Part shown: positions 35,983 through 49,294 of the stretch, piece after piece
Layout of the letters: every line of letters begins with the position of its first letter
Numbering within the stretch: the first letter of the stretch is position 1
NCBI GenBank assembly: GCA_017622845.1
Contig: JAGAQJ010000070.1
Location: forward strand, 1-49,294
DNA: 49,294 nucleotides
Source of the DNA: Lachnospiraceae bacterium
Lineage (GTDB): Bacteria > Bacillota > Clostridia > Lachnospirales > Lachnospiraceae
Reading direction: 5' to 3'
Position numbers and translations under genes: made by a program
Notes under the pieces: model-generated
The model's input: only the letters and a program-made list of their open reading frames with translations
Told to the model about the DNA's origin: nothing
The model's database searches: none

Positions 35983-36455
35983 TTATTGTACACTGACGCT
36001 ATCTGCCTTCTCCGGCACCATGGGGTCCTTCATGTCATATTTTCTGTCCCACTCTTTTGTCGCTTCATCTCTTACCACCTCTGCCCTGTTTGCATTTAAA
36101 AATGATGCGAGCTGGTAAAAATCTATCCAGATTTCATTGTTTCCATCCTTTTGCGATTCGTCAAAAATAAGCTGCAGGCCTACATGCAGATGCACTGTTT
36201 CTATATTGTTGACATTTTCCGTGTCACTATAGCCGGTATGCCCCATATATCCGATCACTTCCCCTGCCGTAACATAATCCCCCTCCTTAAGTCCTTCTGC
36301 ATAGGGTCTGTTCTGCCTTAAGTGGGCATAGTAATAATACCGCTTTTTGTCAAAGCTTCTGATGCCAATGCGCCACCCTCCGTACCGGTTCCAGCCAAGC
36401 GCCTCCACATAGCCGGATTCACAGGCAATAATGGGCGTGCCGACAGAAATATAAA
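35983..36455 (-). pseudogene. M23 peptidase, C-terminal part only
   Basis: The readable part has the second half of an M23 (LytM) domain: GTPIIACESGYVEALGW, GGWRIGIRS, YYYAHL, LKEGDYVTAGEVIGYMGHTGYS and the HLHVG metal/catalytic motif. The first zinc-binding motif (H-x(3)-D, usually in a RGHEGTD-like stretch) and the signal peptide are missing; upstream of about 36455 the frame reads into unrelated DNA that holds a fragment on the other strand. So it is a truncated envelope peptidase gene at the edge of the accessory region, and the junction probably marks an insertion or deletion. An active enzyme is unlikely. The only start in frame is a GTG at 36408. Confidence 0.7.
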
Positions 36456-36472
36456 GCAGAATGATATTTACT

Positions 36473-36612
36473 TGATTATATTGTCTTGATGACCCGAATG
36501 ATATTGTATATCTGTACCGGCTGGCAGAGGAAACACCACTTACATATGCCAGGCTTGCACGAAAGAAAATGGATTGCAGGATTATGCAGATGCGATGAAT
36601 TGGTTTAACTGA
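36473..36612 (+). pseudogene. DUF6061-like fragment, frameshifted
   Basis: A plus-strand frame gives DDPNDIVYLYRLAEETPLTYARLA and, after a shift near 36565 in an A-rich stretch, KENGLQDYADAMNWFN to a TGA at 36610. The pattern PLTYARLA...QDYAD resembles the tail of the 117-residue protein at 48348-48701 (PIEYVAMALSGEMQAYCD). Such small proteins travel on conjugative elements. Only the C-terminal portion is present and it is followed directly by a terminator. Confidence 0.5.
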
Positions 36613-36617
36613 ATCAC

Positions 36618-36640
36618 AACCACCGGGTCAGCCGGTGGTT
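36618..36640 (+). terminator. Hairpin after the DUF6061-like fragment
   Basis: Perfect 9-bp stem AACCACCGG / CCGGTGGTT with a five-base loop followed by TGCTGTTT. Reads as a terminator for the plus-strand fragment. Confidence 0.6.
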
Positions 36641-36692
36641 TGCTGTTTCCCCTACAAGAGGAATTTGCCGACTTGGGCTAAACCCACGTTGA

Positions 36693-37805
36693 TTACTTGA
36701 ATATTGAATTATCTCTTAAATGTTTCTCAAAATCAGCCTTTTGCCCTTCGCATTCACGCCAAAAATAATCATACCGCTCAATAACCATCTTTACCTTTTG
36801 CCCGCAATCACTTATTACTTCATCAATTTCAATAAGCTGACATTCTTGCCCTACAATAAGAATATAATATAATTGCGTTATATCATAAAAGAAAATGCTC
36901 TCCATATTTATCTCCCTGTCATACCAGCGATACATATCTTCCTCCAGTATTTCAGCCTGCTTTAAAAAAGCGGTCTTCCATTTTTCTTTATCCTGCAATG
37001 ATTTCTGAATCGAATTTAATATCAAATTGATATATCCTGTAAACAATGGTTTATTTATTGAAGCGAATACCTTTTTCTTTTTCTCAATCAAATCTTTCCA
37101 CCGATCCAGGATTATGCCGCTTACATGCACTAAGATATAATTTTTTGATGAATCTGACAGACTTTCAAACGCAGGCGATAAAATATCTGGTTTGTGATCT
37201 TGTATCGTCATATCCAAATGAATTGTTTGTGCAAAAATCTCCAATGCTTTTTTATCAACTTGTGAAAGGACAGTAAAAAGCAGCTTCTGCCAGCAGGGAT
37301 TGCTTTCATTTTTTTGAAGCCATCTCTTCCATAGTTTTACATCAATATCTGCTAACTTCTTAACTGCCGTAATAATCCCCTCTTGACGCAGTAAATCCTC
37401 TTGCAGCCTCTTAAGCAAAATTCTGGCACACTCATAATAAAAACACGGATACTCTACATCCATCTTTGTAAATCCGACAATCATATATGTCTCACAATTT
37501 GAGGAAAGATATCCCCAATAATCAATAATGCTATCTTTTTCCGCTAATATCCTGCACAACCGTTTTGCATCCTCATCATATGCCTTCTGAAACAACTTAC
37601 GCACAATCGGATCAGAATTCAGCCCTCTTCCTCTTTCATATGCCTCAATAAATTCATATATCTTATCTATGTCTCCGCTTTTCAATCCTTCTTGCAAATG
37701 CTCAAAAAACATACGATCTGCTCTTTTTGCATTTTCTCCTATTTTTGAAGTGAATCTCAAGGTATTAATTGCTCCCCAAACATCTTTTTTGATTTCGTTT
37801 TCCAC
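36693..37805 (-). CDS. Unknown protein coupled to the VPA1262-like gene
   Basis: About 370 residues. The best start is a GTG at 37805, two bases after the VPA1262-like stop with AGAAGGGA about nine bases upstream; ATGs at 37826 and 37835 overlap that gene but lack a site. Mostly helical, rich in K, E and aromatic residues (YWGYLSSNCETYMIVGF, WRECEGQKADFEKHL), with no recognised motif, signal or membrane segment. The tight coupling suggests that the two proteins act together, in what looks like a defence module. Low GC compared with the core genes to its right in transcription. Function unknown. Confidence 0.65.
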   Translation of the reverse strand: MENEIKKDVWGAINTLRFTSKIGENAKRADRMFFEHLQEGLKSGDIDKIYEFIEAYERGRGLNSDPIVRKLFQKAYDEDAKRLCRILAEKDSIIDYWGYLSSNCETYMIVGFTKMDVEYPCFYYECARILLKRLQEDLLRQEGIITAVKKLADIDVKLWKRWLQKNESNPCWQKLLFTVLSQVDKKALEIFAQTIHLDMTIQDHKPDILSPAFESLSDSSKNYILVHVSGIILDRWKDLIEKKKKVFASINKPLFTGYINLILNSIQKSLQDKEKWKTAFLKQAEILEEDMYRWYDREINMESIFFYDITQLYYILIVGQECQLIEIDEVISDCGQKVKMVIERYDYFWRECEGQKADFEKHLRDNSIFK

Positions 37806-37807
37806 TA

Positions 37808-39427
37808 TTACATTCCCTTCTTCCATACAAGGCATTCCGGATCACTTAACTCTTCCCAAAGTTCCTCAAAGGCATCTACTAACATCTGTGGGTGTTCCAC
37901 GCTTTGTATAATATGATGCTTTTTTCCAAGACTATTTATTGATGTACCAAGTGACCAGACCTGCGGTCTATCCTCATCTTTTCTCACATTCATAAGGAAA
38001 CGATCATGAAAGCTGTACCCATAATCTGCCCACTGACACCTAAGCTCTGCATGTATGCCATAATGATTACTGCGCTTATTCATGATTTTCTGCTGCTCAC
38101 TGATCCATGTATGTACGCTCACCTTACTCTTTTCCGCTATTTCTCCGGAAGTAATCGCATAAAGCTTTACATTCGTGCTTGTCGTAAAATACCATGTATG
38201 TAAAAGGTCCTCGACTGTCAAATACGGATCCCATAAGTATACCTTTCCAATCTTTACACGATTCATTAACGCAATCACATCCGCCACAGCTTTATTCGCC
38301 TGTACATTTCTTCCATACCGCCTAAACTCAGCCCTCACATATAATTCCTCTACTCGTCTGTCATATTGGCGGTTCCTGATATAATCATCGCGCATACGGC
38401 AGATTGGCGGACCCACACAAATATCCTCTGCACACACCGGCTCAAGAGTACTTACAAGAGAACCATTTTCATCATATATCAAACGCTGCTCCCCATACTG
38501 CGAACCTATTTCCATGATAGTTGAAATTTTCCTCATGAAGCTTGTATCCTGGCGTGACAATATCAACTGCCGCTTCAGATCAATGACTGTAGTCTTACAA
38601 ATACGTGAAGCATCCCCGACTGTAAATGTCACCTTACAACCATCCCTGGTAAATATCTTCGTACCAAACGCAACAACTGAATCATCTGTATTACCTTCTG
38701 ATAACAGCATAAACTCATCATCTTTTTCACATTCTTTACAAAACGAAACTTGATATGTTAGTTCCCTCTCCGTTTCATTTGTCAAGTAGGATGAACTTAC
38801 ATTTAGTGAGGGAAACTGAAACACAAAATTTCCAATGCGATCTGAAACAGAGAAAAGATCTATCGGTAGCACACTATGTATTTTTTCTGTCAGTTTTTCC
38901 AGTTCCCTCGGCGTCCATATTTTCAAAACTGTCTTATCTATATCAAAAAATTCTAAAACATAGCTTCCGTTTCTGAAATTATTTTTCAATATCTTATTCA
39001 GTAGTATTTCTCTTGTACTGTCCTGTTGTATAAATACCTTGGTAACTCCTTCCAGATGACCAACTTGTAAATCTCCATCTCCTATATCTATCCTTTGCTT
39101 TTCTCTGCTTGTACAAAGCATTTTGAAAATATCCCTGATTTTCGATACTTCCAAAACCTTTCTTTGTATTCCCAGCGAATATTCATCTGTAATTCTCTCT
39201 AATTTCTCAAATAAATTCTCAGACTTTTCAACTACAGATATCCTCTCTTCAAATGTAAAAATCGTATATATATTACTGGTCGATTTCTGCTTTTTATTCC
39301 ACAAAAAGATAGATATCACTTCACAGCAATTATAATCTCCCAGACTCTTGCAGGAAATCAGTTCATCATATTCCCTAAGCAAATATTCTGTTGAAATATT
39401 TTCATTTATCCCTTTTCCCCTATACAT
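37808..39427 (-). CDS. VPA1262-like protein with PLD-type C-terminal domain
   Basis: 539 residues with GGGTGG ahead of the ATG at 39427. The N-terminal and middle parts recall proteins named after Vibrio VPA1262 (family recognition tentative). Near the C-terminus there is a phospholipase D-like half-site: KVYLWDPYLTVEDLLHTW, then HDRFLMNVRK and WSLGTSINSLGKKHHII, matching the H-D-R-F-L ... S-x-G-x-S-x-N pattern of PLD/HKD-fold nucleases in bacterial defence proteins. A dimer would make the full active site. Overlaps or abuts the next gene (36693-37805). Likely an effector acting on nucleic acid; the trigger is unknown. Confidence 0.65.
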   Translation of the reverse strand: MYRGKGINENISTEYLLREYDELISCKSLGDYNCCEVISIFLWNKKQKSTSNIYTIFTFEERISVVEKSENLFEKLERITDEYSLGIQRKVLEVSKIRDIFKMLCTSREKQRIDIGDGDLQVGHLEGVTKVFIQQDSTREILLNKILKNNFRNGSYVLEFFDIDKTVLKIWTPRELEKLTEKIHSVLPIDLFSVSDRIGNFVFQFPSLNVSSSYLTNETERELTYQVSFCKECEKDDEFMLLSEGNTDDSVVAFGTKIFTRDGCKVTFTVGDASRICKTTVIDLKRQLILSRQDTSFMRKISTIMEIGSQYGEQRLIYDENGSLVSTLEPVCAEDICVGPPICRMRDDYIRNRQYDRRVEELYVRAEFRRYGRNVQANKAVADVIALMNRVKIGKVYLWDPYLTVEDLLHTWYFTTSTNVKLYAITSGEIAEKSKVSVHTWISEQQKIMNKRSNHYGIHAELRCQWADYGYSFHDRFLMNVRKDEDRPQVWSLGTSINSLGKKHHIIQSVEHPQMLVDAFEELWEELSDPECLVWKKGM

Positions 39428-39441
39428 AAATCATCCACCCT

Positions 39442-39556
39442 TTATTCCAATATAAGACTATTGCTTGTGCTTGATGTATCTTCTATTTTTGTTGCAGCTG
39501 TACCTGTTAAAAGTTCCATATCGACTAATTCATTTAACAACTGCCGTGTTCTTGGT
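39442..39556 (-). pseudogene. Helix-turn-helix tail remnant
   Basis: In one frame the minus strand reads PRTRQLLNELVDMELLTGTAATKIED... to a TAA at 39442. This resembles a winged-helix end of the kind found at the C-terminus of Fic or AlbA_2/Schlafen-type proteins. It has no start and overlaps the end of the next remnant in another frame. A gene scrap. Confidence 0.35.
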
Positions 39557-39855
39557 CCTTAACGACTTAGCAGTATCATTACCCTTCCATTTTATAAGCT
39601 GTGCAATATTCTTCGTTATCTTCTTATATTCTCGTCTATCCTTTGCCTGAGCGCAGCTCTCATTTATTTCCTTATAACACAACTCATATACCTGCTCCGG
39701 ATATTCCTTCACCAAATATTTTCCATAATAAAACAAATCATACGGATTCTCCATTACATCTTCAAGCAATCTCTTCTTTTCATTTTCAGACTTTAATTCA
39801 TCCAATAAGCTCTCATAATTCTCATTCCATGCACCGCACTCATTATAAATATCTC
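39530..39855 (-). pseudogene. C-terminal scrap of a helical (SWIM-associated-like) protein
   Basis: The frame reads ECGAWNENYESLLDELKS, then DVMENPYDLFYYGKYLVKEYPEQVYELCYKEINESCA...REYKKITKNIAQLIKW. The pattern resembles the helical C-terminal part of SWIM zinc-finger proteins of Firmicutes. There is no upstream start: a TGA precedes the first residues and the DNA joins straight into the IS630 remnant. The first ATG available (39805) would give only 91 residues. Most likely debris from rearrangement. Confidence 0.5.
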
Positions 39856-40433
39856 ATTCACTTTCTGTGCAAAAGATTCCTGATCTTCCTCTTTTTCGGA
39901 AGAATGGAGCCAGTAACGAATCCTGTGCGGCTGTAAATTTACCTCATTTTTAAAAAACGGCTGACCGACTTTTCTGAAATCCGGTCAGCAATTCCCTGTT
40001 TTTTGATTTCCATAGTTAAAAGCGGCAGGCTCCACTGGATTACTTCATAACCTAAATCGCACGGGTTCCGGCAGGCAGGGGCGATGATTGCCATGATCTG
40101 TTCCTGCGTAAATACAGGCGGTGCGCCGGAACGTTTCCTGTCAGAAAGAAGCAGGCGGATTTCTTCTTCCAGTTTATCCGGTGCGCCTGCTTCAATCTCC
40201 CACAAGGAAGGAAGAGCTTCCATAAAACGATTCCGCCAGGCTGCAACACGGTTGTAATGCAGGTCGACCTGTGAGGCAATTGTCTGGTTAGACATCCCCT
40301 GTGATGCCAGAAAGATAATCCTGGATCGTTTGACCAGGCTTGCAGGAAAGGAGCGACCTTTAGAAAAAGAAGTCAAAATAAACTTTACATCATCGGATAA
40401 AACGGGAATCATATCAATCGTTTTCTTTCGCAT
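39856..40433 (-). mobile_element. IS630-family transposase, N-terminal part, with -1 slippery site
   Basis: The ATG at 40433 opens 164 residues with an IS630-type helix-turn-helix head (LVKRSRIIFLASQGMSNQTIASQVDLHYNRVAAWRNRF) and linker (RSGAPPVFTQEQIMAIIA, YEVIQWSLPLLTMEI, ISEKSVSRFLK). The 0 frame stops at 39939. A slippery heptamer T-TTA-AAA lies just before it (39948-39954) in the correct phase; a -1 shift continues NEVNLQPHRIRYWLHSSEKEEDQESFAQKV, which is the expected IS630 continuation. The DDE catalytic half is missing because the frame runs into unrelated DNA near 39856. So it is a non-functional remnant. Terminal repeats were not located. Confidence 0.75.
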
Positions 40434-40620
40434 AATAGAACCACCTACTCATTTATATTAAGACCATTATGCACTTAAATGACCAAAATGAAAACAATAA
40501 TTTTTCACTGTTAATTGTGCAATGCTGTACTAGCCTCTACCATTAAAAGACCAAACTAAAACCTTTATTCCCAATATAAATTTTCACCATTCCTAAATAG
40601 ACCATTTCCCAAAAAGTATG

Positions 40621-42453
40621 TTACATTTCTCTCCTATGCTTAGGCATTCTTTTTACAACCTCTACTATTTCTTCAACAGAATTCTGACCTTTTAATATAC
40701 CATTTAATAACATTTCTAACATGTCATCGTACTCATTACTATTTATCGGACTAAAATGTGCACATATAATAAAATTGTACGGTGTAATATAACGAGTTCT
40801 TAATTTCGCCTTTCCCTTTAAATCAACAACTTTGCCATCCAGCATAGCAGCACCATCATCATATTCTGCTCTTGTTATCTTTTTATCCTCATATTCTGCA
40901 TACTCTTCATAGTAATATCCATATTTATCTGTCCATTCTTCTATAAAAGCATTATCATTCGCATATAATCCTGTTTCTTCTTCTGGATAAGCTTCTACAT
41001 AAACAAATTTCTTGTAATATTCTGCTGCTGCACATACAACAATCCGCCGTACTTTTATCTCATCGCCATCCATCAAGAATTTGTCATCTGTGATTCTTTC
41101 AAAATTACTAATATCAGAATTGCCACTACCTCTAACCCACCATATAGGACCTACTAATTTTTCCCCACTTAGTGGTTTTTTCAAAAGTATCTGCAATCTA
41201 TCAACACATTCTTTAGAATCTGTAAATTCTTTTACACCTCGTATACCTGGAAATGCCTTTCCAAATCTATAGGCAAAAAAAGGAGTAGATGAATCAAACA
41301 AATCAATATCATTACTTTCTTCATCTTTATCCTGAGAATCTTCTCCAAGATTTTTCTTAATGCATTTTAAATCTTCCTCCTGATTAACTCTATCAATGCC
41401 GCTAATGTTTGCTGCAATAATTTTTTGGACTAAAATAAACTCCTCATCCCAAAAGTTTTTATTTTTCTCTATTTCAGCTTCACTAATACACATAAAGTCT
41501 TCAATAAAACCTCTTGCCACTTCAAACCGTTCAATTTTCTTTGGTGAAAATTCACCTTTCATTAATTTCTCCATCTGTTCTTCAGTAGCAACATACGCAA
41601 CACCACCAAGTTTTTTAATTTTATCTGCCTCACGCACAAACCTATAAAATTCAACCAAATCCCTTGTTCCTGCTCCACCAACACTGGAATTTAAAGTAAA
41701 ATACTTAGAATATAATTCATAGCATAATTCATTCTTTTGTCTAATAATACATGATTGTCTCCTTCCTTTAACTTCCCCAATAACAACAATAAATTTATTG
41801 ATAGCTTTTAAATCCTCTCTTCTTAATATATCCATTGGGTTGTCACTCCAAAAACTGATATTTGATGCAAATGGAAATTCACCTCTGCCATGTACCATCC
41901 ACTCCTGGTTCACTCCAAATACATCAACAAATCTCTTTTTGAATTCATCATCAGGTTCTTTTTCTTGGGTTAAATAAACTTTTAATCCATCTACATTCTT
42001 TAATCCTATAAGCGAGCTTACATATTCAACAGTATATTCTTTTTCATTAAATCTTCTTGCATCATTTAAAAGCAAAAGCAATATTCTAAATCTTTCAGAA
42101 AACCATGAATTAACATTTTCTTTCTTTTTATCGTCATTATTAGAATAAATAAAATTATTCGTAACACTATTTCCATTTCCAGCTACATTACCATTTCCTT
42201 CTACAGAAATTGTATTACTATTATCGTTTTGAATAATTTGATTTTTCTTAGCTATAATATTGTTTCCACCTGAAACATTGTTATTATCATACACTTTAGA
42301 TTTCATTGTATATGTATCTGAATTCTCACCAGACTTTTTTCCCATAATGAGTTTTCCAATAAACCCCAATACTACGACACCAATTCCACTGAAAATCCAT
42401 TCTTTTCCCTCCCAAATTGTACTAATAATTTTATCTATATCCATTATAATCAT
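40621..42453 (-). CDS. Membrane-anchored protein with XRE-like domain
   Basis: About 610 residues; candidate starts are ATG 42453 (AAGGAG four bases upstream) and ATG 42444 (about 13 bases). The upstream open frame to 42558 is not favoured. One membrane helix near residues 14-36 (IFSGIGVVVLGFIGKLIMG), an asparagine/glycine-rich linker (NNNVSGGNNIIAKK ... SVEGNGNVAGNGN), then a helix-turn-helix region ending FGVNQEWMVHGRGEFPF, like the end of phage CI-type repressor N-terminal domains. The remaining 400 residues are unrecognised. A membrane anchor plus DNA-binding-like domain is unusual. Neighbours suggest a defence role; it lies downstream of the primase-RT operon but after a terminator, so probably has its own promoter. 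Confidence 0.65.
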   Translation of the reverse strand: MIIMDIDKIISTIWEGKEWIFSGIGVVVLGFIGKLIMGKKSGENSDTYTMKSKVYDNNNVSGGNNIIAKKNQIIQNDNSNTISVEGNGNVAGNGNSVTNNFIYSNNDDKKKENVNSWFSERFRILLLLLNDARRFNEKEYTVEYVSSLIGLKNVDGLKVYLTQEKEPDDEFKKRFVDVFGVNQEWMVHGRGEFPFASNISFWSDNPMDILRREDLKAINKFIVVIGEVKGRRQSCIIRQKNELCYELYSKYFTLNSSVGGAGTRDLVEFYRFVREADKIKKLGGVAYVATEEQMEKLMKGEFSPKKIERFEVARGFIEDFMCISEAEIEKNKNFWDEEFILVQKIIAANISGIDRVNQEEDLKCIKKNLGEDSQDKDEESNDIDLFDSSTPFFAYRFGKAFPGIRGVKEFTDSKECVDRLQILLKKPLSGEKLVGPIWWVRGSGNSDISNFERITDDKFLMDGDEIKVRRIVVCAAAEYYKKFVYVEAYPEEETGLYANDNAFIEEWTDKYGYYYEEYAEYEDKKITRAEYDDGAAMLDGKVVDLKGKAKLRTRYITPYNFIICAHFSPINSNEYDDMLEMLLNGILKGQNSVEEIVEVVKRMPKHRREM

Positions 42454-42897
42454 TCCTCTCCTTGAATTTTTACAAAAAAAGACCTGCCTTTTCTCAAGAT
42501 AAGTCCATTGTACTACAAATATTAACAACACGCTATTGCAAAATAAGACCGAACTCAATTAGTCAAGAAATCACCCTATATGCTTACAAGTACCGAACTT
42601 ACATTATTTAATAACAAAAATTCGCTTTTGCCATCTCCAGATAGAACATTTCAAAAAAAGAGTAGCAGAAATATTCCCATTTCATCCCCATTCGGACATA
42701 AGAAAAGCCCACGAAGCCCAAAAAATAAAGGCTTTGTGAGCAACTGTAAGCTATTCAAACTCTTGGGCGGAGAGATTTATTTGGCTGTTTCGTGGTACAC
42801 ATTTGTGTGTTTTATTATTCATATTCTTCATAATTTTAGTTTTTCTCTATCTCGTCCAAAATTTTTAGAGCCAAAATGGAGCCATCAAAAATCTAAA
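42454..42897. other. 444-base gap with a hairpin, between two accessory genes
   Basis: No gene supported. On the minus strand a stem AAAGCC / GGCTTT (42704-42735) is followed by TCTTA and could terminate the primase-RT/912-residue operon. The 160 bases between stop 42898 and this stem are unexplained and could be a 3' UTR or a small RNA. The promoter of the next gene must lie near 42470-42600. Confidence 0.4.
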
Positions 42898-45636
42898 TCA
42901 CTTTTGACTTTTCTTAATTTCATCTTTTTTTACAAACATACAAATCGCCCTCTTGGGATTATTTAACATTGTTACCGGAAATACATTCATCTTAGGCATA
43001 TTAAATTCACGTACTACAGTATATACATTTTCTTTAGGTGCAAAACGTGGCCATATTTCTTTTACTTCATCCATAATCTGAGTTGCTTGATTTATTATTT
43101 GCCTTTCATAGGAAACCTCACCTAAATTAATATGCTGTTCATTAAGAAAATCTTCAACTGCTTTTTTCCCTATTTCAGTTCCATAATATCCATGTATCTC
43201 TATTGTGCAATTATTCTTTTTAATAACAGACTCCAATGGAACCTCAACACGTTGTTCCTGTGCAACATCTAAACCATTTTGTTTGATAAAATATTTCTGT
43301 CTACTTGCTCTTACCTGTTCTACTTTTCTCTTTTCACTTTCGTCCGTAACATCAAGATTCAGATAGGCCTTCAGCATTCTTATGGTTGCTGAACCACATT
43401 CAAAATTATCACAGAGAAATACAATGTTATTAATCCGATTGTCATTGTAATAAAACCCATCTTCTTTCAACTCTAGCATATAATTATACATATCATTTGG
43501 CTCTCGAACACTTTTGGCTTTCAAATATGTTTCGTATATACTTGCAAGCACACTATCACTTTCTCGCCCATCCTTAGGAACATATAATGTATTTACATCC
43601 TTTCGTATAAATTTTTCATCACGATTAACATCTGAAAATTCCAACTTCTGATGGTGCATAAATATTTTCAAATAACTCCCTATCTTTGCCTTATCAATTT
43701 CTGACCAAAGCAAATTATGTATTAATCGATAATATACTTGCGAATCAAAATCACAAAAGTATCTTTTTCCCACTTCCTCCAAAGCAGCTCTTTGAAGTAG
43801 CATCATATTGGTAATTTCATCATACTGTGTCCGACTTATTTCTGAAACCGTTTCCAATGTAAGATAATTCTTACTCTGAATCTTTTCAAGTGCTGACAAC
43901 ATCTTTAACAGAGACTGATTGCAAACAACGCCACTTTGTTCCTTAGTGTTATATAACAAATAATATTCATCACCATTTCCCCAAATATCTTCAATCAACC
44001 CTTCTGGATCATCAAGAACATCTGTGTTTATCAATAACTGGGGCATTTCTGTATCTTGGCTAAACTTTTTTCCTACAACATCACTGACCAAATCTACAAC
44101 CAAAATAAAGTTTCCTTCACTATCCTCTTGAACTTTACCATGCAACACATACCATTCTGTTGGATTTTTGCATCCTATAATCTGATACATCCAACTATTA
44201 TCACTCTTTAAAGGATAAAAATCCAGTGGTTCTATTTCATGCTCTTCAATATTTTTCTCCTTTGAATTTTTATTTTTCTTATAAGTAATGGCACAATATT
44301 CATTTTCTCTTTGCCATTGCCCTACTATAAATGTCAAGGCTTCTACAGAATCAGAACAATGCTCCACCCAATTTTTCAACACTTGACTTTGATACCATTC
44401 ACTTGAATTTAATTCATCCACCCCAAGCCCATTCACTCCTACATTCTCATTTTGAAGAAGCATAATAGCTAAACCAAATGCCACTCTATTCATCACGCAC
44501 TCTTTGCAAACTTTAAGCGCCGAACTCCTGTATTCACGTATCGCATCTATTAAATGTTCTTTTTCATAAATTGTGCCCGTCTTATTTTTCAACCATCCTT
44601 TTACTATTTTATTATCATTATAACAGTATGGATTAACTGGTAATAAAGAACCATCTGCTTTCTTAATAATAGAATGTTCAAAAAGAATATTATATGCCCT
44701 TTTATCAAAAACCAACCTCAAAAAAGCCTGTCTTCCCTCTTCACTTTTTAGAATGTCAGAATGATCTTTCAATGAATCGCTTTTCTCCAAATCATATTCC
44801 ACAAAAAAGCCTATTTTATTCCTATGATGATCTTTTTCCTCTTCGATTGTTACTCCATCTATTTCCCATAAAGGCTTTCCTTCAAAATAGTTTCGGCTTT
44901 TATGCCTTATAAGAACTTTATTTGTCATAGCATCATAAAAGATCATAACTCCATTTTTCTGATAATTAAGTAAATCCAATGTATCTATTATATACCCAGA
45001 AGCGTTAAGGTACTTAATAAATCTTAAATTGCACTGGTCAATTAGTGTCTGAAGAATTTTCTGTTTATCTTCACTATTAATAAATAATCTAACTGCAAGT
45101 TGAAGAATATGTATCTGATATATTCCCAACGGATTATTAATATCTACAAATTCTGGTCTTTCAACAACTTTTGCTATCATATTATGAATAGGAAAAACAT
45201 GTTCTTCGTTCTCTTTAATGTCAAAAACAAAATAAATATTATCTAATTCCTGTATAAGAATCTGCATAGATTTTTGAAGCAACTCATCCTCTATTCTCCA
45301 AACATCCCCAGTCTTACCATGTATTTTTAATTCATGTAAAAACCATACAGTGGTTAAATTACTATCATATCGTTCCTTTTCAGTTGCTTCTACACCAATC
45401 TGTTCAATACTCTCAAATGCCTGTAATAATTCTTCTACTATATCTTGTGGAACATTTCCTTCATACATAGCTTGACAATACTGAAGCAATTGGCAATACA
45501 ATGCTGCAACAAGTAATCTATACTCCGATAATTCTTGTGGTGTACATGATTTTAATTCTTCAATTGTTTTCAATATTATTTTTCTTTCGTGCTGTCCTGC
45601 TTGCAACGCCTGCAAATATATCTCAAGCTTTTTCAT
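42898..45636 (-). CDS. Large unknown partner of the primase-RT
   Basis: 912 residues. Its start overlaps the primase-RT stop by 14 bases (45623-45636), so the two are co-transcribed and translation is probably coupled. Low GC, helical N-terminal 200 residues, then a mixed region. No membrane segment or signal peptide. One stretch near residue 740, INNIVFLCDNFECGSATIRMLKAYL, vaguely recalls a phosphoribosyltransferase loop, but I do not trust it. Several cysteine and tryptophan positions are scattered without pattern. No family recognised. By position it is an obligatory partner, effector or regulator of the primase-RT. Confidence 0.75.
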   Translation of the reverse strand: MKKLEIYLQALQAGQHERKIILKTIEELKSCTPQELSEYRLLVAALYCQLLQYCQAMYEGNVPQDIVEELLQAFESIEQIGVEATEKERYDSNLTTVWFLHELKIHGKTGDVWRIEDELLQKSMQILIQELDNIYFVFDIKENEEHVFPIHNMIAKVVERPEFVDINNPLGIYQIHILQLAVRLFINSEDKQKILQTLIDQCNLRFIKYLNASGYIIDTLDLLNYQKNGVMIFYDAMTNKVLIRHKSRNYFEGKPLWEIDGVTIEEEKDHHRNKIGFFVEYDLEKSDSLKDHSDILKSEEGRQAFLRLVFDKRAYNILFEHSIIKKADGSLLPVNPYCYNDNKIVKGWLKNKTGTIYEKEHLIDAIREYRSSALKVCKECVMNRVAFGLAIMLLQNENVGVNGLGVDELNSSEWYQSQVLKNWVEHCSDSVEALTFIVGQWQRENEYCAITYKKNKNSKEKNIEEHEIEPLDFYPLKSDNSWMYQIIGCKNPTEWYVLHGKVQEDSEGNFILVVDLVSDVVGKKFSQDTEMPQLLINTDVLDDPEGLIEDIWGNGDEYYLLYNTKEQSGVVCNQSLLKMLSALEKIQSKNYLTLETVSEISRTQYDEITNMMLLQRAALEEVGKRYFCDFDSQVYYRLIHNLLWSEIDKAKIGSYLKIFMHHQKLEFSDVNRDEKFIRKDVNTLYVPKDGRESDSVLASIYETYLKAKSVREPNDMYNYMLELKEDGFYYNDNRINNIVFLCDNFECGSATIRMLKAYLNLDVTDESEKRKVEQVRASRQKYFIKQNGLDVAQEQRVEVPLESVIKKNNCTIEIHGYYGTEIGKKAVEDFLNEQHINLGEVSYERQIINQATQIMDEVKEIWPRFAPKENVYTVVREFNMPKMNVFPVTMLNNPKRAICMFVKKDEIKKSQK

Positions 45637-48151
45637 CTGACACCTCCGCAGTAATTAATCTCAAAGCATTTATGATTATTTCGTCATCCTTCTTCATTTT
45701 TGTATCAAACAATTTTTCTATATATTCATGCTTAATCCTTTCGAAAAGAGAGGGGGCAATCACGTGATCTTGCACAGCATAATACAGCGAATGTACAAAA
45801 TTGCTAAAATTTAATGAATCAAGTGATATAAGAGCTAACTCTTCGTTATCTAAAATGAGCTTCATATATCGTTCATTGCAAAATAAAAATTCATAAAATT
45901 TTCTAAAATTACTTCCCCTACCATTGCAACTTTTCAAAATATCTTCACGATAGTAATCTAAGCACCAACTTTGTGCCTCTGAAAATGTATTTGTGCCAAA
46001 TATATATCTCAAAGAGCCCACACTAAAAGAATTTTTCATTAAATAATTCTTTAATTTTTTACGTCTTTCTTCTTCAACAAGAATTCCTGTATATTCATTT
46101 TCCTTTAATTCATAGTTAAAACTATCTTGATGAAGAAGTTCTCTTCTATCTTCATCATTTATGAGACTAATTTTTCCAAAATATTTGGTTTTATCATAAT
46201 TTACAGGGAGTCCTGCTGATGGAAGTGCACCAATTAAATAATCATACATTGCCTTTCCGTCAAAATCTGGTTCACAAAAAAAGACAATATCATCAACATA
46301 ACGATACATATAAAATCCGCTATTTTTAAATCGTTGACACACAGACTCTAATAATCGATCCAAAAACATCTCAGCAATAATCCTTGCATAGGCCGGTCCC
46401 TGTGGAACGCCAATCCGTCGTCCGTTCTGTAGCTTCTTCATCAACATATCATTAAATTCTGTTAAAAAAACAAAAATATTTTTTGTTTCTTCATCCAGTA
46501 AATCTTCAAAAGACCTAAATACTGACACAAAATCAATATGATCATAAAAACCTTTTAAGTCTATATAAAACGCTTCATAATTATCCATAAAAGGGATTTC
46601 TGTAAATACTCTGATGTGATCTATGAATTTTCCCCATGATGAATACCAATAATAAAAAATTCTTTCTTGTGAAGTGTAAGATATATGATAACTAAATGAT
46701 TTCCAATTTACTTTCATTTTGCTACACAATCGCAATGCAAGATTGGTTGTAATAACGCGATCTTTAGCAGAAAGTGATACCAATGTTCTTACCTTTTCTG
46801 ATGATTCTACTCTCTCATAAACTTTATATTCAGTCGGTACATATTCAATTTTTTCTCCCCTTACTATCTTTTCAATTATGTCATCATAGTGTTGTAAATC
46901 ATACTGCTTTAAATTACATAACTTATTCCATATAGAAACATCCGGTACCTCATCATTATCTTTTAAATAAGCCTTTTCCTTTTTTACTGTAAGCCCAATA
47001 TCAGAAACAGCCTTCTTCTCATTCAGTTCCTCATACTGTACCAAAAGATTCTGTTCCAAACCACATTTACGTAGTAAATAATGTAAACTTGTCTCCTGTC
47101 CATCAAGGCTGCTTTCTATCTTCATGCCATAAATGTGATACAGATATTCAAAAGTAGCTGGGAAATATCTACCACCTACTTTTTCAATATTACTATATGT
47201 CTTTTGCTCATCATAATTAGGGAATTTCCTAAACACATCTTTTACAAGCTGTGCATTCGAATCACATAAATACAATGTTCCAAGTAACACAGTCCAGTCT
47301 TGTGGCATTGCTAATCCTTGTTTCATTCTCAGAAAAATTTTATTAAACACTTCCGTCTCTGATAAAATATCTATCACTTGATCCACTGTTATTTCTATTT
47401 TATCTACTAAACGATATTTTCTATATTTTAATTTTACTTCATCACTATGTGATATATCTATGCCCAGTCTACTTGTAACTACTTCTATGTCATTTGGCTT
47501 ATAACCCTCAAGTATCTTTAGCTGTTCTTGGAAGAACTTTTCTGACTCAGTATCATCTTTTTTTTGAAAACTTTTAGTAAAAAAAAACGATCTATCACCA
47601 GACATATGGCATGAAAGAGGAAATTTCACTTGTTTCCCAACTATATTATTTCGACTGCTGTCTGTAGCTGGAAATCTATCAAGCCCCCACTCCTTACTTT
47701 CCATAATTCCATACAATGCCGGACAACACTGCTCCAACTTACACACAATTCGATACCCCAGTTCCTTTGTTATCAGCTTATCAAACGTTATCCAAACATG
47801 AATACCCCTTCTTCCAGAGAACTCAAGCATATAATTAATTTCAAATTCATCTAACATCTGTGTAAATGGAACAATGCACTGATTGTACAAAGAGAGTACG
47901 TTTGGCTCGACTTTATCCTTACAATCAAAGTCGAAACATATCCATTTAATTCTGTTTGTCTTATATCCCTGCTGATAACATCCCATAGACCCTTGTCTTT
48001 TAAGCATTTGTTCAATCACAAATGGTGACATAGGAAAATATTTTGTAATATATCGTCCATCATTTTGTTGAATTCCAGCTGCATAACTATTTACTACAAA
48101 CAAACTATATTCCAACTGCGCAATATTCTTGATAATCTGATCTATTGTCAC
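45623..48151 (-). CDS. Archaeo-eukaryotic primase fused to a reverse transcriptase (DRT-like)
   Basis: 842 residues from a GTG at 48151 with GAGGTG six bases upstream; the ATG at 48214 lies ahead of the -10 element. The N-terminal part is an AEP primase of the TOTE-like type: metal ligands D74-F-D76 (ICFDFD), SGRRGIHVWITF (112-123), DRFP and the KQVKFPLSCH motif (173-182). The C-terminal half is a reverse transcriptase: YIDLKGFYDHID, GVPQGPAYARIIAEMF, and the catalytic YVDD at about 618-621 (MYRYVDDIVFF). From memory, a primase-RT fusion occurs in UG10/DRT type 7 defence systems; membership needs a profile search. It starts an operon with the 912-residue unknown. Likely anti-phage DNA synthesis, inferred. 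Confidence 0.85.
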   Translation of the reverse strand: MTIDQIIKNIAQLEYSLFVVNSYAAGIQQNDGRYITKYFPMSPFVIEQMLKRQGSMGCYQQGYKTNRIKWICFDFDCKDKVEPNVLSLYNQCIVPFTQMLDEFEINYMLEFSGRRGIHVWITFDKLITKELGYRIVCKLEQCCPALYGIMESKEWGLDRFPATDSSRNNIVGKQVKFPLSCHMSGDRSFFFTKSFQKKDDTESEKFFQEQLKILEGYKPNDIEVVTSRLGIDISHSDEVKLKYRKYRLVDKIEITVDQVIDILSETEVFNKIFLRMKQGLAMPQDWTVLLGTLYLCDSNAQLVKDVFRKFPNYDEQKTYSNIEKVGGRYFPATFEYLYHIYGMKIESSLDGQETSLHYLLRKCGLEQNLLVQYEELNEKKAVSDIGLTVKKEKAYLKDNDEVPDVSIWNKLCNLKQYDLQHYDDIIEKIVRGEKIEYVPTEYKVYERVESSEKVRTLVSLSAKDRVITTNLALRLCSKMKVNWKSFSYHISYTSQERIFYYWYSSWGKFIDHIRVFTEIPFMDNYEAFYIDLKGFYDHIDFVSVFRSFEDLLDEETKNIFVFLTEFNDMLMKKLQNGRRIGVPQGPAYARIIAEMFLDRLLESVCQRFKNSGFYMYRYVDDIVFFCEPDFDGKAMYDYLIGALPSAGLPVNYDKTKYFGKISLINDEDRRELLHQDSFNYELKENEYTGILVEEERRKKLKNYLMKNSFSVGSLRYIFGTNTFSEAQSWCLDYYREDILKSCNGRGSNFRKFYEFLFCNERYMKLILDNEELALISLDSLNFSNFVHSLYYAVQDHVIAPSLFERIKHEYIEKLFDTKMKKDDEIIINALRLITAEVSDEKA

Positions 48152-48173
48152 GATATTCACCTCGCCAAAAATT

Positions 48174-48201
48174 ATTATATCCAAACATTTTATCTGTTTA
48201 A
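48174..48201 (-). promoter_or_regulatory. Predicted promoter of the primase-RT operon
   Basis: TTAAAC (48196-48201), a 16-base spacer and TATAAT (48174-48179) on the minus strand, ending about 22 bases before the GTG at 48151. This placement supports the GTG over the upstream ATG. Confidence 0.5.
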
Positions 48202-48347
48202 TTACTGGGTGCAATTGATTACAAACATACTTATTCTTTAATAACCAATTTCCTTCCCTCTTAATATATCATATATTTTTTCTTTTTTCACGCCAAACAA
48301 TTACTTGAAATGTTGACCTACCGAATAATGATTTATTCATTAATTTT

Positions 48348-48701
48348 TCAACTCTCATACCGAAAAAACTCCCTTGCCCTTGCCTCAGCAGTCGCTTTGT
48401 TATCCCCCTTCTTCAAATACCCTTGAACAATTGTTCCAAACATACTCTTAACCATTTCATCCTCAATATCACAATATGCCTGCATTTCCCCGGATAAAGC
48501 CATTGCCACATACTCTATCGGCTTATTTTCTAACAACTTATGAAGCTTAGCCAATGACTGCTCTGTTGTCCTCAGAGCAGCCTCCACTTCTTCACACTTT
48601 ATACGAAGCATATTTCCATCAGCATACCACATCTCAACATATCCGTTATCCATGTTATAGGCACATTTTACAATGTTATCCCATCTATTCTCATCCACCA
48701 T
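48348..48701 (-). CDS. DUF6061-like small mobile-element protein
   Basis: 117 residues. The opening (CAYNMDNGYVEMWYADGNMLRIKCEEVEAAL) matches small proteins of conjugative elements that begin with a YNMDTGYVEV-like strand pair and end with a PIEYVAMALSGEMQAYCD helix. Function unknown. It follows the mobilisation-type gene and precedes the primase-RT operon by about 200 bases. A broken relative lies at 36473-36612 on the other strand, so related sequences flank the accessory block. Family name is from memory. Confidence 0.6.
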   Translation of the reverse strand: MVDENRWDNIVKCAYNMDNGYVEMWYADGNMLRIKCEEVEAALRTTEQSLAKLHKLLENKPIEYVAMALSGEMQAYCDIEDEMVKSMFGTIVQGYLKKGDNKATAEARAREFFRYES

Positions 48702-48719
48702 ATCAACCCATCCTTTCGT

Positions 48720-49154
48720 CTATCTCGCTCCATAAGACCTATGATACTGTCTTGTCTGTTGCTCCATGCGTTCCTGCTCCTTTACCTTACTGATAATAGT
48801 GTTGATTTGCTCCGCACCGGCATATCGTTTCACACGCTCCAGATCATCGGCTTTTTCCTGCAATAATTCCGTTTTAGTGTTCATATCTCTAATCTTGCCT
48901 TTATAAAATTCCACATCACTTGTGAGATGCTTAACTTTATCTCGCAGTTGAAGCACTTCCTCTTTTAATCTAACACATTGGATTGTCAGGCTTTTTACCA
49001 GTTCCTTCAATTTGCTCACAAGAGGCAACGCTACTTTATCCCGAAATGACTTTGCACTTGCAAATGCTCCCAGCTCTGAAAGTTGCCATTCAGGTTCTTC
49101 ATCATACTTTCGGACGTCACGCTGCAACAACTTTTCTGTGTTGTGGTCAAGCAT
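48720..49154 (-). CDS. Coiled-coil tail of a mobilisation protein (relaxase C-terminus-like)
   Basis: 144 residues, nearly all coiled coil (LKELVKSLTIQCVRLKEEVLQLRDKVKHLTSDVEFYKGKIRD), ending in a basic region (EQERMEQQTRQYHRSYGAR). This is how the C-terminus of MobV/Pre and similar relaxases looks; the catalytic N-terminal domain is absent and there is no good ribosome binding site at 49154, so it is probably a truncated gene. It lies beside an oriT-like inverted repeat. Identification as a relaxase tail is weak; any coiled-coil protein of a mobile element would fit. Confidence 0.4.
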   Translation of the reverse strand: MLDHNTEKLLQRDVRKYDEEPEWQLSELGAFASAKSFRDKVALPLVSKLKELVKSLTIQCVRLKEEVLQLRDKVKHLTSDVEFYKGKIRDMNTKTELLQEKADDLERVKRYAGAEQINTIISKVKEQERMEQQTRQYHRSYGAR

Positions 49155-49217
49155 TTTTGTAACACTTGTGGCTAAAATTTATTGGATTGTTGCCTGGAGG
49201 CTATCGGAACTGTCAGC

Positions 49218-49266
49218 TTTTATCAATGGTGCTTCGCACCGCTGCGCGACCATGCCATTGACAAAA
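49218..49266. repeat. Inverted repeat resembling an origin of transfer
   Basis: TTTTATCAATGG (49218-49229) and CCATTGACAAAA (49255-49266) are inverted with one mismatch; between them lies GGTGC-TTC-GCACC. A long inverted repeat close to a mobilisation gene is the usual look of a plasmid or element oriT. No nick site can be named. Confidence 0.4.
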
Positions 49267-49294
49267 CCTGCCACCTCCGATTTTTGGCAGTCAA

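What the first reader, a model, noticed from the sequence alone, without database searches (positions are those of the whole stretch)
45623..48151. Primase-reverse transcriptase fusion in a small accessory operon
One protein carries an intact AEP primase core (D74/D76, SGRRGIHVW, KQVKFPLSCH) and an intact RT (YVDD, QGP motif). A single enzyme that could both prime and reverse-transcribe or polymerise DNA needs no external primer. The TOTE-like primase form fused to this RT may differ from known DRT type 7 members.
Basis: partly seen in the sequence, partly recalled or inferred. Interest (0 to 1): 0.92.

Follow-up and report, generated by a model that had tools for sequence, protein, structure and literature searches.

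The report
Split DRT7 reverse transcriptase-primase operon
The protein belongs to an already described bacterial anti-virus enzyme family (DRT7/UG10) that joins a DNA-starting enzyme to a reverse transcriptase; what the databases used here miss is a second gene, locked to it, that looks like the detached other half of the family's long form.

Summary
In detail: one 842-aa protein (45623-48151, minus strand) carries an intact AEP primase and an intact reverse transcriptase. The fusion itself is known: it matches PADLOC RT_UG10_small over its length (E=0, 1154 bits), i.e. DRT type 7. The primase is closest to CRISPR-associated primase-polymerase; "TOTE-like" found no support.

The new part lies outside the given coordinates. 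A 912-aa ORF (42898-45636) overlaps the RT gene by 14 bp and reaches no family cut-off. All four intact small-form loci have a homologue there. DNA similarity to the closest relative covers just these two genes. Profile comparison makes the ORF the separated C-terminal half of the 1777-1909-aa UG10 long forms (score 47.0; best of 100 shuffles 24.0). Its last 279 residues model as a phosphoribosyltransferase-like fold; one of five long forms passes Pfam's PRTase-CE cut-off there.

Reading: a two-gene DRT7 whose RT-primase makes DNA and whose PRTase-like half acts as effector or subunit. No activity is shown. Three DRT7 preprints could not be read, so the split may already be described.

The parts
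45623..48151 (-). RT-primase, 842 aa, UG10_small / DRT type 7
   Evidence: PADLOC PDLC03747 E=0, 1154 bits, residues 4-832
47444..48151 (-). AEP primase domain, about residues 1-236, CAPP-like; D74, D76, H118, D158
   Evidence: profile A3 against PDB 7nqd/7nqf E 3.4e-31; residues identical in 11 of 11
46121..46885 (-). reverse transcriptase core, about residues 423-677; D531, GVPQGPA, YVDD 618-621
   Evidence: Pfam RVT_1 7.5e-12; residues identical in 11 of 11
45623..45636 (-). 14-base overlap of the two genes; overlap of 14 or 4 bases in 4 of 4 small-form loci
45643..45647 (-). GGAGG before the second gene's ATG, inside the RT gene
   Evidence: sequence
42898..45636 (-). partner O912, 912 aa: homologue of the C-terminal half of the UG10 long forms
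   Evidence: homologues directly downstream of the RT in L032, L033, L034; hhalign 47.0 against at most 24.0 in 100 shuffles
42898..43737 (-). PRTase-like C-terminal domain of O912 (residue 634 to the end)
43384..43419 (-). PRPP-loop-like stretch FLCDNFECGSAT, O912 residues 740-751
   Evidence: acidic residue and glycine kept in 9 of 9 aligned domains; the loop consensus is recalled

Best explanation
This is a two-gene form of the DRT7 (UG10) defence system. The first gene encodes a CAPP-like primase fused to a UG-type reverse transcriptase. The second, probably made by coupled translation, is the separate counterpart of the C-terminal half of the single-chain long form and ends in a PRTase-like domain. 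Proposed working: on phage infection the RT-primase starts and extends DNA with no outside primer and no dedicated RNA template; the partner assembles with it as the missing half and acts either as effector (for example on PRPP or nucleotides) or as a subunit that controls synthesis, so that phage growth stops. Shown here: conserved polymerase sites, conserved two-gene cassette, similarity of the partner to the long form, PRTase-like fold of its end. Reported by others for DRT7 and seen only second hand: protein-primed, protein-templated A/T-rich duplex-like DNA. Inferred: assembly, trigger, effector or subunit role, and defence itself.
For: UG10_small match E=0; catalytic residues identical in 11 of 11. 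Partner directly downstream in the window and in L032, L033, L034, not in the five long-form loci, whose single ORFs have 1777-1909 aa against 842+912. Long-form profile A2 absent from the whole genomes of L032-L035 and present in the six genomes of L036-L041. Window/L032 DNA similarity covers window 42926-48150 only. hhalign: two collinear segments, P 2e-4 and 4.4e-3, six control pairings P>=0.09; 0 of 100 and 0 of 200 shuffles reach the observed scores. PRTase-CE in 3 of 5 long-form C-terminal domains at E<=0.1, one above the cut-off. PRTase-like fold. DRT7 DNA product: PMC13213688, passages. PRTase as retron type III effector: PMC12548924, passages.
Against: hhalign probability is only 46.7%, the second segment falls to P 0.037 with query and template swapped, and a global alignment failed. 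None of the four small-form domains hits PRTase-CE; VIA Z stays under 8 and Foldseek had nothing at E<=0.001. In the loop the first of the two usual acidic residues is missing in 9 of 9 and the T/S before the glycine is missing in the four small forms, so catalysis may be lost. The middle of O912 could not be modelled. Only four intact small-form loci are known here. Nothing shows activity, complex formation or defence.
Confidence: 0.6

Rival explanations
1. The RT-primase is the working enzyme and O912 only a scaffold or regulator whose PRTase-like domain no longer catalyses anything.
For: Loop residues altered in small forms; no PRTase-CE hit in them; other DRTs work by DNA synthesis alone (PMC13213688, passages).
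Against: Fold and an acidic-glycine loop are kept in 9 of 9; PRTases are effectors of another RT-based defence (PMC12548924, passages).
Confidence: 0.3
2. O912 is an unrelated accessory gene that happens to travel with this RT branch.
For: Sequence similarity to the long form is weak.
Against: Overlap in 4 of 4 loci; two collinear profile matches beyond all shuffles; matching lengths; DNA similarity confined to the two genes.
Confidence: 0.06
3. The primase comes from TOTE conflict systems or the gene belongs to a CRISPR adaptation module.
For: PADLOC 'adaptation polymerase' PrimPol match 7.2e-11 and CAPP similarity.
Against: No TOTE model listed; UG10 profile far better; no cas family among the seven ORFs scanned.
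Confidence: 0.02
4. It is a group II intron or retron RT.
For: Weak hits to the RT core: group_II_RT_mat 4.8e-12, retron_St85 2.5e-5, both below cut-off.
Against: UG10 profile E=0; primase residues identical in 11 of 11; no Rfam match in 36000-49294.
Confidence: 0.01

Closest known systems
DRT type 7 / UG10 small form (PADLOC RT_UG10_small)
   Same: Full-length match, CAPP-like primase plus RT with YVDD
   Different: The PADLOC model covers only the RT-primase; the partner gene is matched by no PADLOC model at E<=1 in the window
UG10 long form (PADLOC RT_UG10_large)
   Same: RT-primase half matches (1.7e-123); O912 resembles the C-terminal half
   Different: Two overlapping genes here instead of one chain of 1777-1909 aa; only 24-27% identity in the RT-primase half
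CRISPR-associated primase-polymerase (CAPP; PDB 7nqd, 7nqf)
   Same: Primase domain
   Different: Fused to a UG RT; no cas family among seven ORFs scanned
Type III retrons with PRTase effector
   Same: RT-based defence paired with a PRTase-like protein
   Different: UG10 RT with a primase, no retron RNA found, the PRTase-like domain sits in a 912-aa protein; relation of the two PRTases not shown
PRTase-CE (Pfam PF24390)
   Same: Found in the equivalent domain of long forms L038, L041, L037
   Different: Not matched by the four small-form domains

Membership tests
DRT type 7 / UG10 | RT of the UG10 profile | tested here: met
   PDLC03747 E=0, residues 4-832
DRT type 7 / UG10 | fused AEP primase with intact catalytic residues | tested here: met
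DRT type 7 / UG10 | YVDD in place of YADD (PMC4244168, passages) | tested here: met
   11 of 11
DRT type 7 / UG10 | anti-phage activity and DNA product | not testable with these tools
   needs experiment
UG10 long form | C-terminal half on the same chain | tested here: not met
   separate overlapping ORF
UG10 long form | C-terminal half present, on any chain | tested here: met
   collinear profile similarity, hhalign probability 46.7% but 0 of 100 shuffles as high
PRTase-CE | Pfam PF24390 above cut-off | tested here: not met
   no hit in the window domain or the other three small forms
Phosphoribosyltransferase fold | fold like solved PRTases | tested here: inconclusive
TOTE AEP primase | match to a TOTE primase model | tested here: inconclusive
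   none listed at E<=1; presence of such a model in the library not confirmed
Retron | non-coding RNA beside the RT | tested here: inconclusive
   no Rfam match in 36000-49294; upstream stretch not similar between window and L032, the one relative compared

The most novel reading that the evidence does not exclude
Small-form DRT7 is a two-subunit system in which a template-free RT-primase makes DNA as sensor or activator and a separate PRTase effector then disables the cell's nucleotide metabolism: a counterpart of type III retrons whose effector has gone unannotated because tools see only the RT gene.
Probability: 0.3. Interest if true: 0.72.

Novelty: new variant of a known kind. Interest (0 to 1): 0.45.

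Why it matters
If the partner is really the other half, bench work that clones only the RT gene of small-form DRT7 leaves out half of the system. The PRTase-like half gives a directly testable idea of how DNA synthesis becomes defence, and links DRT7 to the PRTase effectors of retrons.

Tried and rejected
TOTE origin of the primase: no TOTE model listed in Pfam; CAPP is nearest.

Phage or viral carriage: no match in 'phages' with the RT-primase and no confirmed relative in viral contigs with four queries; a long-form query in 'phages' matched 7 records, only over the RT core.

Plasmids: one UG10 relative, in Peribacillus muralis. Its match reaches base 13 of the circular record, and an IS3 transposase gene lies about 530 bases beyond the record start; a C-terminal half was not found there. 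Seven further plasmid records matched the long-form query only over short RT or primase stretches.

Direction of the split: the RT-primase tree is unrooted. More long forms: 1 of 298 genomes around the Pseudomonas locus, its own.

Rows dropped: of the 11 relatives, L032-L034 with the window form A1 (partners), and L036, L037, L038, L040, L041 form A2 (long forms). L039 (1138 aa) and L003 (1116 aa), whose ORFs stop 64 and 110 bases from a contig end, were used only in the RT-primase alignment A3. L035 (residues 2-433 in two ORFs) and L042 (match to residues 16-209 only) were in no alignment. In one search, 134 of 392 genomes matched the UG10_small profile; in the listed rows only G000 and G197 matched over nearly the whole profile, the rest mostly over the RT core.

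Full report
Observation. An 842-aa ORF lies at 45623-48151 on the minus strand. Its GTG start at 48151 agrees with the start of the 71% identical relative L032. It matches PADLOC RT_UG10_small over residues 4-832 with E=0 and 1154 bits, and Pfam RVT_1 at 7.5e-12. Sixteen primase and RT motif residues, among them D74, D76, H118, D158, D531 and YVDD, are identical in 11 of 11 aligned UG10 proteins.

What the fusion is. The group was named UG10 in PMC4244168, with YADD changed to YVDD (passages). The fused primase is in print in PMC8934634 (passages). A 2026 commentary, PMC13213688 (passages), lists DRT7 as an RT-primase-polymerase fusion and cites a preprint reporting protein-primed, protein-templated, palindromic A/T-rich duplex-like DNA. 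PMC13174585 (passages) and PMC13314766 (passages) cite DRT7 preprints. The three preprints and the 2022 UG/Abi survey (its identity is recalled) are not held, so I saw nothing of them. The primase is nearest to CRISPR-associated primase-polymerase: NF040561 1.5e-16 (below its cut-off), and profile A3 against PDB 7nqd 3.4e-31. No TOTE model was listed at E<=1.

The partner gene. The next ORF, 42898-45636 (912 aa, here O912), overlaps the RT gene by 14 bases and follows a GGAGG. It has no PADLOC family at E<=1, only MSV199 below the cut-off in Pfam (0.0056), nothing in NCBIfam at E<=0.01 and nothing in the PDB at E<=1. A scan of genome contigs with the RT-primase gave 88 candidate stretches and 11 relatives. 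A homologue of O912 lies directly downstream of the RT in L032 (62%), L033 (24%) and L034 (29%), and in no other of the 40 loci searched besides the window's own. Overlaps are 14, 14, 4 and 4 bases in window, L032, L033 and L034. The three relatives are UG10_small. Five other relatives are single ORFs of 1777-1909 aa (L036, L037, L038, L040, L041); the three that were scanned match UG10_large end to end (L036, L037, L040). The remaining three are L035 (broken), L039 (cut near a contig end) and L042 (primase part only).

One cassette. BLASTN of the last 15.3 kb of the window against L032 gives one block at 71.4%, window 42926-48150, which is the two genes to within 30 bases. The neighbourhoods differ: L032 has an ERF protein and a YhcG nuclease, L033 a type I restriction subunit and a Schlafen AlbA protein, L034 a NADAR protein, a phage-type integrase and a Mob protein. 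The operon has 32.0% GC against 44.9% for window 4001-36000. Profile searches for O912 found only the genome that supplied the query: 1 of 391 (class), 1 of 397 (family), 1 of 247 (family of the L034 genome), 1 of 241 (order of the L033 genome); share some genomes. The long-form profile A2 was found in 6 of 10 genomes behind the loci, those of L036-L041, and not in those of L032-L035.

O912 as the long form's other half. hhalign of four partners (A1) against the C-terminal halves of five long forms (A2) gives two segments in the same order: 193-354 with 235-400 (P 2e-4, probability 46.7%) and 703-853 with 820-993 (P 4.4e-3). With query and template swapped the values are 3.3e-4 and 0.037. Six control pairings, reversed or with the RT-primase alignment, gave P of 0.092 or more; a global alignment failed. 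Column shuffles of A2 reached at most 24.0 in 100 trials against 47.0 observed. For the C-terminal domain alone, 200 shuffles reached at most 20.7 against 30.3 (P 1.9e-3, probability 14.3%). The RT-primase tree puts the four small forms on one side of a fully supported branch and seven others on the other, but it is unrooted, so splitting and fusion cannot be told apart.

Mechanism. The most likely reading is a two-gene DRT7: a self-priming, DNA-making enzyme plus a PRTase-like half. No RNA partner was seen: no Rfam match in 36000-49294, and no similarity upstream of the start codon better than E 0.34 between window and L032, the one pair compared. This agrees with the protein-templated synthesis reported for DRT7 (second hand). 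PRTase genes characterise type III retrons as effectors (PMC12548924, passages), which makes an effector role here plausible, not shown. A catalytically dead structural half is a serious alternative because of the altered loop.

Novelty. The fusion is known. Searches of the held library with DRT7, UG10 and related words listed no paper that, in the passages I saw, describes a split form or this partner gene; I did not read those papers whole, and the key preprints are not held. The label 'new variant' is therefore provisional.

Noticed in passing
window 36693-37835 (-) and 37808-39427 (-): Two overlapping ORFs in the same low-GC stretch; the 539-aa one matches NCBIfam VPA1262_N_dom (1.8e-50) and weakly PADLOC PDC-S05 (2e-4); the 380-aa one has no family above a cut-off. 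Possibly another defence or island unit.
   Followed up: partly
window 40621-42558 (-): 645-aa ORF downstream of O912 without Pfam or NCBIfam match; only a weak PADLOC PDC-M43A hit (8.4e-5).
   Followed up: no
window 39939-40433 (-): Short ORF with HTH_32/HTH_23 domains as in transposases, perhaps the remnant of an insertion element.
   Followed up: no
window 48348-48701 (-): DUF6061 protein (2.9e-33) just upstream of the RT-primase gene.
   Followed up: no
G383 contig C23 16927-19074 (part held as L010): A 950-aa open frame matches the UG10_small profile in swapped order: RT part first, primase part after it. It may be an RT-primase fusion with the domains exchanged.
   Followed up: no
L035 6941-8289: Decayed UG10 relative: only residues 2-433 are matched, in two ORFs, and no partner is found in the locus.
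   Followed up: no
L034 2682-3602 and L032 3262-4632: A NADAR protein and an ERF recombinase-like protein lie within a few kb of the small-form operons.
   Followed up: no
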